A stretch of 10,092 nucleotides of DNA from Campylobacter sp. UBA1713 (lineage in GTDB: Bacteria; Campylobacterota; Campylobacteria; Campylobacterales; Campylobacteraceae), in the NCBI GenBank assembly GCA_002317305.1, contig DCIZ01000123.1:12658-22749 (forward strand), in the 5' to 3' direction. Positions 6,135 to 9,975 of this stretch are shown here, piece by piece. The notes beneath the pieces are model-generated. The model did not search any database and was not told the DNA's origin. It saw nothing but the letters and a program-made list of their open reading frames with translations. The translations under genes and the position numbers were made by a program. How positions within the stretch are numbered: the first letter of the stretch is position 1; the number at the start of each line of letters is the position of its first letter.

Positions 6135-6177
6135 CCGCCATTATTCGCAAACGTTGCAAAGCGACCGAAGAATCTCA
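6135..6177 (+). repeat. Diverged copy of the 64-bp repeat (R5, partial)
   Basis: Begins CCGCCATTATTC and ends GCGACCGAAGAATCTCAC, matching the two ends of R2 and R3, but the middle (CGCAAACGTTGCAAA) has been replaced by a different palindrome-like core and the outer tail is missing. It also lies next to a heptamer array. No gene is seen in 6042-6283. Confidence 0.5.
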
Positions 6178-6246
6178 CGAATGATGTATAGCATAAGCCA
6201 AACAAGCACGTATGAAAAATTCAAGCTTTTTTAAGTATGGTTTTAG

Positions 6247-6271: not shown

Positions 6272-6276
6272 AGGAA
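6272..6276 (+). promoter_or_regulatory. Ribosome binding site that points to ATG 6284
   Basis: AGGAA lies seven bases before ATG 6284. No comparable site precedes TTG 6378, the first possible start in the long downstream frame. This is the main reason for placing the true start of the large glycosyltransferase gene at 6284. Confidence 0.7.
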
Positions 6277-6299
6277 ATTTTTCATGAAAATCCAGCCAC

Positions 6300-6311
6300 G
6301 AGAGAGAGAGA
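6300..6311. repeat. (GA)6 dinucleotide tract in the start region of the glucosyltransferase
   Basis: Six GA units lie 16 bases after ATG 6284, exactly where the reading frame is lost. With six units the ATG frame ends at TAA 6323. With seven (or four) units it enters the long frame. Dinucleotide tracts at gene starts are a known site of slipped-strand phase variation in host-associated bacteria. Six units is short for such a tract. Confidence 0.85.
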
Positions 6312-6808
6312 TTAGCCCTCGCTAAACCACTTCTCATATCTTTTTACATACTTATCGCACTTATTGTCATTACGGCTTTGACGCCGAATTTACAAAAATT
6401 CTTTTTACGAGATTCTGCATTTGCGACACTAGAGCAAAACTACGCAAAAGTTGAAATCTTTTCAACAGATGTAAATTTCACGACAAACAACCCAGAAAAA
6501 ACACGCATCGCTAGCATAAAAAATGGCATAAAAGTCGCATTTTCACAATCCATATTTTACAAAAACTACACACTTGTTGTAACACCAAAAGCGTTGCTAA
6601 AAACTTCGCCCGAGCAAAAAACCGCCACTATCACACTAAAATTTGCCAGCGAAGAGACAAAAGTAGACGGCAAAAGAGTCGAGGCTTTGAGTAAATTTAA
6701 GAATCTAAAAGTCAACGGCGCACCTTTGTTTTACACAAAAAGCACAAGTTTTGCCGAGCCTTTTACGCACGCACTCACCTTTTCTTTGCCAAAGTTGCAA
6801 CAAAATTC

Positions 6809-6868
6809 TACACAAACAACAGAAACAACACAAACAACACAAACGACTACACAAAAAACAACAAACGC
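6809..6868 (+). repeat. Low-complexity ACACAAACA repeat encoding a Thr/Gln linker
   Basis: Degenerate repeats of ACA CAA ACA encode Thr-Gln-Thr and Thr-Thr-Gln runs (STQTTETTQTTQTTTQ). The stretch lies between the N-terminal soluble domain and the next membrane helix of the glucosyltransferase, so it is probably a flexible linker on the outer face of the membrane. It keeps the reading frame. Confidence 0.75.
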
Positions 6869-8608
6869 CACGCCACAAACCATAAAAATAGAATTTAGTG
6901 TCAAAAAACCACTCTACTTTTCAAAGCTTTTTCGCTGGACAAATTTAATGCTCGCTATCGTCCTCATCTTTAGCGTGCCTTTTGTGTGGATAAAATTCGA
7001 AATTTCACAAAAACTATCAAAAAGCAAATTTAACGCCACCGACCTCGCAACTCACTTGTGGACAAACTACAAAAACATCGACAAAGTCTATCGCCACAGC
7101 TTTTGGATCATCTTTGCGGTCTTAAATGTGGTTTTTGGCTACCTGACCGTCTCGTTTTTGTGGGGGAATCATGACTGGGATTTTCTCATTAGCGGTTCGC
7201 TAACAGGAGATGGTTTAAACTACTCAAAATACATTGCAAAAGTCGGACGCTACGGCACTTACGCTTTTAACGACCTCTTTACAAACGGCGCTGTTTTACC
7301 CATTTTCTCCACCGTTGTAAGCATTTTGGCAATGTCGCTTTGTGCCATTTTTCTATGCAAATTGTGGCAAATTCCAGAAAAAATTTGGGCTTACTCTATA
7401 ACTGGACTTCTGTTTTTTTGCAACCCTTTTCCTTTGTCGAGATTCTTCTACATGCATGAAATTCCGAGCTTTTTTATAGCCATCATGTGTGGCGTGCTAG
7501 CGATTCTGCTAAACAAAAATGGCTCAATCCTAAAAAGCATCATAGGCAGTGTTTTGATTCACTTTATGATGAGCGTTCATCAGTCGCTTGCCACTGTTCC
7601 CTTGATGGCATTGTGTGGCGCTCTGTTTGTGTCGAGTTTACAACCAAATTCACTTAAAGAGATTTTAACTAAATTTAAATTTGCCTTTTTAGCAGTCGGT
7701 TTTGGTTTTATTTCATTTCTTTTTGTGAGACAAATTTTAAAATATTTTGGCTTTTACGCCACTTCTTACAACAACGAATTTGTCTCATTTGAAGGACTTT
7801 TAAGTAAATTTATAACAATCATAAAAGAGTCTTTTGAGCAAATTTTTTCATATAATTTTGCCTTTATGTCAAATTTTGCAACTTGCTTTTTTGCGTTTTG
7901 TTTTTGCGCTACTGTGTTTATTCTTTTGCAAAAAAGGAAATTTATCTCCATTTTTTTGCTGTTCATCACACTTTTAACAACCAAATTTATCTACCTAACA
8001 GCACAATACAACCTCGGCTTATCGCCGAGAATTGACATAGGTGGACTTTTGTTTTTTAGAATTTTGTGTGTTGTAGCACTCCTAATATTAACAAAAAACA
8101 TCGTCTCAAATTTGGTCTTTCTTTGTGGCATAGTGGCGGTATTTTTTAGCTCCATAGGCGTTTTTGAAGCAACAAAAGTTTGGAATTTAGCGCTCGAAGC
8201 CGACAAAATGCTTTTCAACCGAATCATCACTAGACTTGAACCAAATTTAAAACCAAACCAAAAATACACGCTTGTTACTTTTGGAAATGTCCCAAACAAC
8301 AAAGCATTTAGACTAGCGACACATGCAAACAAAAAAGGGTGGGAGATGACAAACCTGTTAGATAGATTCTGAAATCCGTTTGAAAGCGTGGAGAGTTTTT
8401 ACCATAGAAAATTTATCAAAAAAAGAATCGCAAATCCAAATAAAAATAACTTTTTTGTCAAAAAACTAAAAGCAAAAAATATTTTACAAAAAGCTGACGC
8501 GTGGCCAGCGACAAATTCGCTTTTTATATACGAAGATGTTATTGTATTTGTAGGCTCAAAAAACAAACTTACCGATGCGTTAAAATAATTTTAAAAAAAG
8601 GATAAAAC

Positions 8609-9571
8609 ATGTTGATTAGCATCATTGCACCGTGCTACAATGAAGCGTTGAATTTGGTTAAATTTAAAGAAGCTGTTTTGGAGCAGTTCGACAAGATAAA
8701 AAAGTATGAATCTAGTGTGTTGGGAGGCGTAGATGTAGAGATAGAATTTGTCTTGGTTGATGATGGCAGCAAAGACAACACGGAGGAAGTTTTACTGGAA
8801 CTTGCGGAGCAAGATGAGCGTGTGAAACCGCTGTTTTTTAGTAGAAATTTTGGCAAAGAGGCTGCCGTTTTGGCTGGTCTTACAAATGCAAAAGGCGATG
8901 CGGTTATTTTACTTGATGCCGATTTGCAACATCCAGTTGAGTTGATTCCAAAAATGTGGGAAAAATTTAAAAATGGCGCTGACGTTGCGTTTGCAAGACG
9001 CGTAAACAGAGAAGGCGAGAGTAAAATTCGTGCCTTTTTTAGCAATATGTTTTACAAATTTAACAAATTCATAAGTGGCGTAAAACTTATGAGTGGCACG
9101 AGTGATTATCGTCTTATGAGTCGCGAAGTTATTAATTCTATTTTAAGCATCAACGAGTATCATCGTTTTTCTAAAAATATTTTTGAGTGGATAGGTTTTA
9201 AAAAAGAGATGGTAGAGTATGAATATAAAGCAAGAGAAGCGGGGGCGAGTAGCTGGAGTTTTACTAGCCTGTTCAAATACGCTGTTGAAGGAATCTTGAG
9301 TTTTAGTGCTGCGCCACTTCGTCTTGCATTTTTGCTCGGGTTTGGTGCGGCGTTTTTTGGCGGTTTTTACGGATTTTATTTGATGATAAAATGGATAATT
9401 TTTGGAAATCAAGTAAGCGGTTGGACTTCTCTTTCTTGTCTAATGAGTTTTTTTGGCGGTTTGATTCTGATCGTTCAAGGAATTCAAGGCGAGTATATTG
9501 CTAGAATTTACGAGCAGTCAAAAAACCGACCACACTATATCATTAAAAAACAAAAAAAACGCAAAGGCTAG
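8609..9571 (+). CDS. GtrB-like polyprenyl-phosphate glycosyltransferase (GT2 family)
   Basis: Membrane-anchored GT2 enzyme that, in this family, moves a sugar (often glucose) from a nucleotide sugar to undecaprenyl phosphate on the cytoplasmic face. The 320 residues fit GtrB/DPM-type enzymes. Visible are IIAPCYNE at 5-12, VLVDDGSKDNT at 48-58, FSRNFGKEAAVLAGL at 77-91, the metal-binding DADLQHP at 103-109 and SGTSDYRLMSR at 162-172. Two C-terminal helices lie at about 237-262 and 273-297, followed by the family's closing pattern, IYEQSKNRPHYII. ATG 8609 has AAGGA at 8598-8602, and the gene follows the GtrII-like gene by 20 bases, so it would supply that enzyme's lipid-linked donor. No gtrA-like flippase gene is in the window. 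The gene looks intact although its partner does not. The sugar cannot be told from sequence. Confidence 0.85.
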   Translation: MLISIIAPCYNEALNLVKFKEAVLEQFDKIKKYESSVLGGVDVEIEFVLVDDGSKDNTEEVLLELAEQDERVKPLFFSRNFGKEAAVLAGLTNAKGDAVILLDADLQHPVELIPKMWEKFKNGADVAFARRVNREGESKIRAFFSNMFYKFNKFISGVKLMSGTSDYRLMSREVINSILSINEYHRFSKNIFEWIGFKKEMVEYEYKAREAGASSWSFTSLFKYAVEGILSFSAAPLRLAFLLGFGAAFFGGFYGFYLMIKWIIFGNQVSGWTSLSCLMSFFGGLILIVQGIQGEYIARIYEQSKNRPHYIIKKQKKRKG

Positions 9572-9728: not shown

Positions 9729-9792
9729 CGCCGTCATTCTGAGGCTGGCTGTGCCGACCGAAGAATCCCCTGTCTTTTGAGCGAATAGAATC
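9729..9792 (+). repeat. 64-bp dispersed repeat, copy R2
   Basis: Runs from CGCCGTCATTCTGAGG to GAATAGAATC. It is a direct repeat of R3 at a spacing of 91 bases, with eight differences by eye. The central stem is GGC-TGT-GCC. The stretch 9572-9728 before it is A/T-rich with no gene; it holds only small palindromes such as GTTTGCAAAC and AAAAAACGTTTTTT. Confidence 0.85.
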
Positions 9793-9819
9793 ATCAAAAT
9801 TCGAGAATCTACGAACCAA

Positions 9820-9883
9820 CGCCGTCATTCTGAGGGAGGCGTAGCCGACCGAAGAATCACCTGCCTTTTGAGCGAGTAGAATC
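9820..9883 (+). repeat. 64-bp dispersed repeat, copy R3 (left half of a palindrome)
   Basis: Central stem GGC-GTA-GCC, ending TTTTGAGCGAGTAGAATC. With R4 on the other strand it forms a 156-bp inverted repeat (9820-9975). Confidence 0.85.
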
Positions 9884-9920
9884 TACAAATTTGCTTTTTT
9901 GTAAATTTGTAGATTCTACT
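9875..9920. repeat. Perfect 18-bp inverted repeat at the centre of the R3-R4 palindrome
   Basis: AGTAGAATCTACAAATTT (9875-9892) is matched by its exact reverse complement at 9903-9920 around a ten-base T-rich loop (9893-9902). It joins the R3 and R4 halves, so the whole of 9820-9975 could fold into one long hairpin in RNA or a cruciform in DNA. Confidence 0.9.
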
Positions 9921-9975
9921 ATATCAAATTTCAGGGGATTCTTCGGTCGGCTTTGCCTCCCTTAGAATGACGGCG
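9912..9975 (-). repeat. 64-bp dispersed repeat, copy R4 (right half of a palindrome)
   Basis: Starts GATTCTACT and ends AGAATGACGGCG, close to R1 throughout (one difference in the last 42 bases). A heptamer array follows four bases later. Confidence 0.85.

What the first reader, a model, noticed from the sequence alone, without database searches (positions are those of the whole stretch)
6284..6400. Likely phase-variable start of a surface-glycan glucosyltransferase, now in the OFF frame
A ribosome site and ATG at 6284 lead into a (GA)6 tract (6300-6311). With six units translation ends at TAA 6323 after 13 codons. Adding one unit (or removing two) runs the ATG into the 664-codon frame and adds a first membrane helix (PLLISFYILIALIVITAL) that this frame encodes but cannot start by itself. 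It has no ATG there, and TTG 6378 has no ribosome site. Length change in simple repeats is an established switch for surface-glycan genes in host-associated bacteria; its use here is inference.
Basis: partly seen in the sequence, partly recalled or inferred. Interest (0 to 1): 0.78.

Follow-up and report, generated by a model that had tools for sequence, protein, structure and literature searches.

The report
GA-repeat switch on surface-sugar gene
A short GA repeat sits between the start signal and the body of a membrane sugar-transferase gene, and similar repeats recur in this genome at other likely surface-modifying genes, so the bacterium probably turns such genes on and off through copying errors in the repeat, although this copy also carries a second stop further on.

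Summary
A ribosome site, ATG 6284 and (GA)6 at 6300-6311 run into TAA 6323, while a 694-codon frame with a membrane helix opens through the tract without its own ATG. The interpretation gains strong indirect support. The genome holds 11 GA tracts of at least 11 nt, against 0.34 expected. Eight follow a leader ATG, each with a Shine-Dalgarno 4-mer. Genes at the tracts include three GtrII genes, two sulfatase-fold (phosphoethanolamine-transferase-like) genes and an MBOAT acyltransferase. Of 8 loci with a clear long gene, 3 are in frame and 5 out, and all three phases occur. An in-frame sister (C80) carries the same N-terminal module right behind its tract. So this looks like a dinucleotide contingency set with the window gene as an OFF member.

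No second isolate was reachable, so length variation itself is unseen. Known kind of switch; unusual repeat unit for this family.

The parts
6272..6275 (+). Shine-Dalgarno-like AGGA, 8 bases before ATG 6284
   Evidence: Sequence; 8 of 8 leader ATGs in this genome have such a 4-mer against 171 of 2011 background ATGs
6284..6325 (+). Leader frame: ATG, 13 codons, TAA (OFF product as assembled)
   Evidence: Sequence, phases
6300..6311 (+). (GA)6 tract
   Evidence: one of 11 GA tracts of at least 11 nt in the genome, and the shortest
6288..8372 (+). Long open frame, 694 codons, ending at TGA 8370
6327..6380 (+). First membrane helix (PLLISFYILIALIVITAL) directly behind the tract
   Evidence: Sequence; a hydrophobic stretch at the same place in C33, C80 and C133
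6312..6977 (+). N-terminal module shared with proteins of C33, C80 and C133 (more weakly C66 and C134)
7233..8006 (+). GtrII domain, Pfam PF14264
   Evidence: 82.8 bits, curated cut-off 30
8370..8372 (+). In-frame TGA inside what is probably a longer gene
8373..8588 (+). Probable C-terminal tail, 71 sense codons and TAA, in the same frame
   Evidence: Open frame; weak match to the C-terminus of C33
8609..9571 (+). Family 2 glycosyltransferase, GtrB-like by neighbourhood and architecture
   Evidence: PF00535, 115.9 bits; best NCBIfam model PgfS, 314.9 bits, below its cut-off of 500

Best explanation
The GA tract is a translational contingency tract. Ribosomes start at ATG 6284 and read across the repeat. 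Slipped-strand mispairing during replication changes the number of GA units and so moves the downstream GtrII-like gene into or out of frame. As assembled it is out of frame and only a 13-codon peptide is made. It is one of 11 GA tracts in this genome (plus two AC tracts) that sit at the start of, or inside, genes mostly for surface decoration. Shown here: tract, leader, ribosome sites, phases, paralogs, families. Inferred: slippage, switching in cells, the surface-glycan role. This copy also has an in-frame TGA at 8370 and the shortest tract, so it may be a slow or decaying member of the set.
For: 11 GA tracts of at least 11 nt against 0.34 expected, 10 of at least 13 nt against 0.016. Eight follow a leader ATG by 9-53 nt, all 8 with a strict SD 4-mer against 171 of 2011 background ATGs. 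Of 8 loci with a clear long gene 3 are in frame and 5 out, with all three phases represented. In-frame sister C80 reads from an SD-preceded ATG through the tract into the same N-terminal module. Gene content is rich in surface modification families. Frame-shifting AG repeats are described in Mycoplasma (PMC3498834, abstract and passages).
Against: No length variation was seen: no second isolate was found (1 of 16 genus genomes; 1 of 153 family genomes; own entry only in the protein database). The window's tract is only 12 nt. The gene has a second stop. At three of the 11 tracts (C111:12539, C122, C159) the next gene has its own start, so a simple on/off frame switch does not describe them. 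Two of six loci with the N-terminal module have no GA tract.
Confidence: 0.78

Rival explanations
1. The window gene is a decaying pseudogene: once a contingency gene, now with a fixed internal stop and a shortened tract. This can be true together with the best explanation for the set as a whole.
For: In-frame TGA 8370 with an open, weakly homologous tail behind it; shortest of 11 tracts; flat G+C by codon position (0.37, 0.35, 0.39).
Against: 694 codons without any other stop; GtrII match well above cut-off. The missing tail lies beyond the Pfam domain, so a shortened protein might still work.
Confidence: 0.3
2. Assembly or sequencing error: the tract length and the TGA are miscalled and the gene is intact.
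For: Draft assembly of 160 contigs; no reads were available.
Against: The own genome has 8 loci in all three phases with tracts up to 20 nt, which errors alone would not concentrate at SD-preceded leaders. The protein-database entry of C80 comes from a contig of another length and is identical.
Confidence: 0.08
3. Programmed ribosomal frameshifting at the GA repeat.
For: The leader overlaps the long frame, and several loci are out of frame as assembled.
Against: All three phases occur among 8 clear loci, 3 of them in frame; one fixed frameshift would give one offset.
Confidence: 0.03
4. Translation starts at TTG 6378 or another internal codon, and the leader and tract are irrelevant.
For: TTG 6378 is the first listed start of the long frame. 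C134, a module gene without a tract, seems to start at a TTG.
Against: TTG 6378 lies behind the helix and has no SD 4-mer, whereas the TTG of C134 has one and lies before its helix. C80 has its start upstream of the tract.
Confidence: 0.05

Closest known systems
AG-repeat methyltransferase gene mmyCImod of Mycoplasma mycoides (PMC3498834; abstract and passages)
   Same: AG/GA dinucleotide repeat inside the reading frame; the unit number decides between full protein and early stop
   Different: A restriction-modification gene with the repeat well inside the coding region; variation was seen between clones there and not here
Poly-G/C contingency genes of Campylobacter (PMC6321876 and PMC8355987; passages)
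   Same: Repeat-driven frame switching of surface and glycan genes in what is probably the same bacterial family
   Different: There poly-G/C makes up 91% of the repeats and dinucleotide repeats number 44 in 77 genomes (eight species); here one genome has 11 GA tracts
CT-repeat start of H. pylori oipA (PMC10564699; search listing only)
   Same: Dinucleotide repeat in the 5' region of a surface-protein gene
   Different: CT on the coding strand, not GA; an adhesin, not a transferase
Salmonella gtr operons (PMC2909390; passages)
   Same: Phase-variable glucosylation of a surface glycan by a gtr-type transferase beside a donor-lipid transferase
   Different: Switched at the promoter by Dam methylation and OxyR, not by a coding repeat

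Membership tests
Simple-sequence-repeat translational contingency locus | Repeat unit not a multiple of three, between a start codon and the body of a gene | tested here: met
   (GA)6 between SD-preceded ATG 6284 and the 694-codon frame
Simple-sequence-repeat translational contingency locus | Repeat number at or above the published dinucleotide cut-off (six units, PMC6321876) | tested here: met
   Exactly six units here; 14-20 nt at the ten other GA tracts (cut-off)
Simple-sequence-repeat translational contingency locus | More tracts than chance, in both in-frame and out-of-frame states | tested here: met
   11 against 0.34 expected; 3 in frame and 5 out of 8 clear loci
Simple-sequence-repeat translational contingency locus | Length variation between reads or isolates, with a matching change of expression | not testable with these tools
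   No reads; no second isolate found
GtrII glucosyltransferase family (PF14264) | Match above Pfam's curated cut-off | tested here: met
   82.8 bits against 30
GtrII glucosyltransferase family (PF14264) | Transfers glucose to a surface glycan | not testable with these tools
   Needs biochemistry
Three-gene gtr cluster (gtrA, gtrB, acceptor-specific transferase) | GtrB-like family 2 glycosyltransferase next to the transferase | tested here: met
   8609-9571; also beside the C33 and C4 GtrII genes
Three-gene gtr cluster (gtrA, gtrB, acceptor-specific transferase) | GtrA flippase gene | tested here: inconclusive
   None among the eight window proteins given to Pfam; the genome was not searched for it

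The most novel reading that the evidence does not exclude
A start-proximal GA tract behind a short leader is a recurrent switch module in this bacterial family. In the window's species it governs enzymes that share an N-terminal module but carry different catalytic domains (GtrII and sulfatase-fold phosphoethanolamine-transferase-like), so that one shared surface acceptor is re-decorated in changing combinations. In a second genus (g9) a similar leader and a similar post-tract peptide recur ahead of several genes, two of them with GLUG motifs.
Probability: 0.3. Interest if true: 0.65.

Novelty: new member of a known kind. Interest (0 to 1): 0.5.

Why it matters
It turns one suspected switch into a set of 11 GA tracts in one genome, in what is probably a family whose phase variation is described in print as dominated by poly-G/C (PMC6321876, PMC8355987, passages). 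Each tract gives a simple prediction: mixed lengths in reads. It also shows an N-terminal module shared by GtrII and phosphoethanolamine-transferase-like proteins, which suggests that these enzymes work on one variable surface structure.

Tried and rejected
Other isolates: the window's GtrII protein was found in no other genome of the genus (own genome only, 1 of 16) or family (1 of 153). The protein database returned the window's own protein and, for the C80 sister, its own entry and one distant hit (24% identity). Genome contigs returned four distant loci in Akkermansia and Alphaproteobacteria MAGs, which I did not study.

A shared promoter cassette upstream of the tracts was considered, because C80, C122 and C159 share TTTTTAGAGRTGCCCTTAA. 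Rejected as specific to the tracts: the motif is a dispersed repeat with 381 matches at up to 3 mismatches (control 2), and control upstream regions carry it too. In one search, 7 of 28 leader pairs exceed the 99th percentile of 1035 control pairs, but five of the seven or so best pairs involve genes that carry this repeat. What remains is a similarity of about 79 columns between the C33 and C141 leaders and about 59 between the window and C159, suggestive only.

Programmed frameshifting was rejected on the mixed phases. The dispersed-repeat pattern had no match in viral contigs, and the N-terminal module gave 44 pattern matches there, none confirmed. Six paper searches gave precedents for AG and CT repeats; 'GA dinucleotide repeat' with 'phase variation' gave 0 papers. 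I could not name the species. No structure was predicted.

Full report
What is there. ATG 6284, with AGGA ending 8 bases before it, starts a 13-codon frame that crosses (GA)6 at 6300-6311 and stops at TAA 6323. Another frame is open from 6288 to TGA 8370, 694 codons. Its first listed start is TTG 6378, which has no ribosome site by eye and lies behind the first membrane helix (6327-6380). The 664 aa from TTG 6378 match Pfam Glucos_trans_II (82.8 bits, cut-off 30). They match no NCBIfam model (E up to 0.001) and no PDB sequence (E up to 0.1). Downstream lies a family 2 glycosyltransferase (8609-9571). Upstream are an ABC-transporter ATPase and an FtsX-like permease (FtsE/FtsX by my reading), an M23 peptidase, a leucyl aminopeptidase and YchF.

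After TGA 8370 the frame stays open for 71 sense codons to TAA 8586. A stop-free run of 72 codons has about a 0.8% chance at this base composition. The tail weakly matches the C-terminus of the C33 paralog (28% over 46 residues, E 0.021 for a single comparison), and C33 has no stop there. The main bodies of the two proteins align over 639 columns at 28% identity. So the window gene probably has a premature stop as well as an out-of-frame start, or the assembly has an error.

The tract is one of a set. In the own genome (1.7 Mb, 160 contigs) GAGAGAGAGAG has 35 matches, which collapse to 11 tracts of 12-20 nt. A dinucleotide estimate from the fetched stretches expects 0.34 runs of 11 nt or more and 0.016 of 13 nt or more. 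The stretches used for the estimate contain the tracts. Observed: 11 and 10. Genes at the tracts: GtrII on C17 (the window), C33 and C4; sulfatase-fold proteins on C80 and C133, whose best NCBIfam hits are phosphoethanolamine transferase CptA models, below cut-off; an MBOAT acyltransferase on C111:1086; a YqcI/YcgG protein on C141; a TauD-like protein on C42 (26.6 bits, just under the cut-off of 27); a family 2 glycosyltransferase behind the C122 leader; an FdtA, hexapeptide-transferase and DegT-aminotransferase cluster behind the C159 leader; a gene without a Pfam match behind the C111:12539 leader. C141 and C42 are thus not obviously surface genes; their NCBIfam hits are far below cut-off. 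A family 2 glycosyltransferase adjoins each of the three GtrII genes. Two AC tracts also exist. One lies in frame between an SD-preceded ATG and a sulfatase-fold gene; the other shows no leader ATG.

Leaders and phases. Eight of the 11 tracts follow a leader ATG at 9-53 nt; three (C4, C42, C111:1086) lie inside genes. A strict SD 4-mer precedes 8 of 8 leader ATGs, against 171 of 2011 ATGs in the fetched stretches (binomial P 2.7e-9). Where two leader ATGs were possible (window, C122) I took the nearer, before scoring, so the P value is somewhat flattering. Eight loci have a clear long gene (C4, C17, C33, C42, C80, C111:1086, C133, C141): 3 are in frame and 5 out, and all three phases occur. 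Free slippage predicts this; one fixed frameshift does not. At the other three (C111:12539, C122, C159) the next gene has its own start. At C122 the leader frame ends on the start codon of the glycosyltransferase, which suggests translational coupling (inference).

An in-frame sister shows the likely start. C80 begins at an SD-preceded ATG and reads Met-Lys-Thr, an Arg-Glu repeat, a hydrophobic helix and then a domain that aligns with the window, C33 and C133 (415 columns, 21-29% identity to the window). A profile of this module has seven matches at six loci of the own genome, and one match in each of 3 of the other 152 family genomes. Against a strict link of module and tract: two of the six loci, C134 and C66, have no GA tract at the module's start. 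C134 is an open frame with DUF6056 that seems to begin at an SD-preceded TTG right before its helix. C66 is interrupted: two open segments of 312 and 349 codons with stops between them. So the helix seems to be the basic N-terminus, and leader and Arg-Glu repeat are an added front piece in the tract genes.

Other species. GA runs of 13 nt or more occur in 3 of 16 genomes of the genus: the own genome (10 tracts), G010 (one tract, at a contig end) and G013 (one, inside an EcoRI-type methylase gene). They occur in 50 of 153 family genomes and in 13 of 14 genomes of genus g9. The own genome has the fewest poly-G 9-mer positions of the 16 (12, against 19-76). In g9 a pattern that catches only part of the tracts gave 19 in 10 of 14 genomes. 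I kept 13 and dropped 6 that lack the common leader. Of the 13, 12 have a leader ATG near -26 to -31. The peptide behind the tract resembles L-K-R-x-L-N-Y in the longest open frame: mean pairwise BLOSUM 8.3, against -1.8 and 2.9 in the other two frames. That frame was picked for being longest and anchored on a Leu, so its lack of stops is built in and its score is biased; differences by codon position are weak (0.45, 0.44, 0.51). One of the 13 is in frame (L082). Two g9 open frames carry GLUG motifs; two others gave no Pfam match.

Literature. PhasomeIt (PMC6321876, passages) used a cut-off of six dinucleotide units and found 1944 poly-G/C tracts and 44 dinucleotide repeats in 77 Campylobacter genomes, the latter in eight species. 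So dinucleotide tracts in Campylobacter are already on record; the passages do not give the unit. A 2021 review (PMC8355987, passages) calls A/T and TA tracts an unexplored phenomenon. [quoted passage not shown] AG repeats that shift frame are reported for a Mycoplasma methyltransferase (PMC3498834, abstract and passages) and discussed for hpyAVIBM of H. pylori (PMC3411764, passages). Salmonella gtr operons vary by Dam and OxyR (PMC2909390, passages). That the window's family is Campylobacteraceae is my inference from sequence style; the best PDB match of its aminopeptidase is 4zi6, which I recall as H. pylori. No call named the species.

Verdict. The feature is real and the reading is probably right in kind: a start-proximal dinucleotide switch, out of frame as assembled, and one of a set. 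The kind of switch is known. The newer parts are the number of GA tracts in one genome and the N-terminal module shared by different surface enzymes.

Noticed in passing
Genome G000, e.g. L041 minus strand 2268, L044:2570, L047 minus strand 2546: A dispersed repeat with the core TTTTTAGAGRTGCCCTTAA: 381 matches at up to 3 mismatches, control 2. Listed copies often come in opposed pairs about 160-230 bases apart, and some lie at contig ends. It looks like a small mobile or palindromic element.
   Followed up: partly
window 9730-9960 and 6160-6180; also L041, L043, L045, L046: A second dispersed repeat around CGCCGTCATTCTGAGG...GCCGACCGAAGAATC, in both orientations.
   Followed up: no
L044:2651-2870 (C122): The leader frame with the GA tract ends on the start codon of the family 2 glycosyltransferase, a possible translational-coupling version of the switch.
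   Followed up: no
L122:224-1771 (C65): An AC tract of 16 nt lies in frame 20 nt behind an SD-preceded ATG of a sulfatase-fold gene (EptA_B_N 21.9 bits, cut-off 22.3), so the set includes another dinucleotide unit.
   Followed up: partly
L072:2957-4131 (G013): In a sister species a GA tract sits at the join of two frames that each match part of an EcoRI-type adenine methylase.
   Followed up: partly
L045:600-1080 (C133): The N-terminal module of C133 holds a long Asn/Gln/Thr-rich repetitive insert that the other module proteins lack; the window's gene has a short Thr/Gln-rich repeat at 6810-6866.
   Followed up: no
protein P0002: The database copy of the C80 protein is identical but lies on a contig of 16155 bases, while C80 here has 16002, so another assembly of this genome or a close strain may exist.
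   Followed up: no
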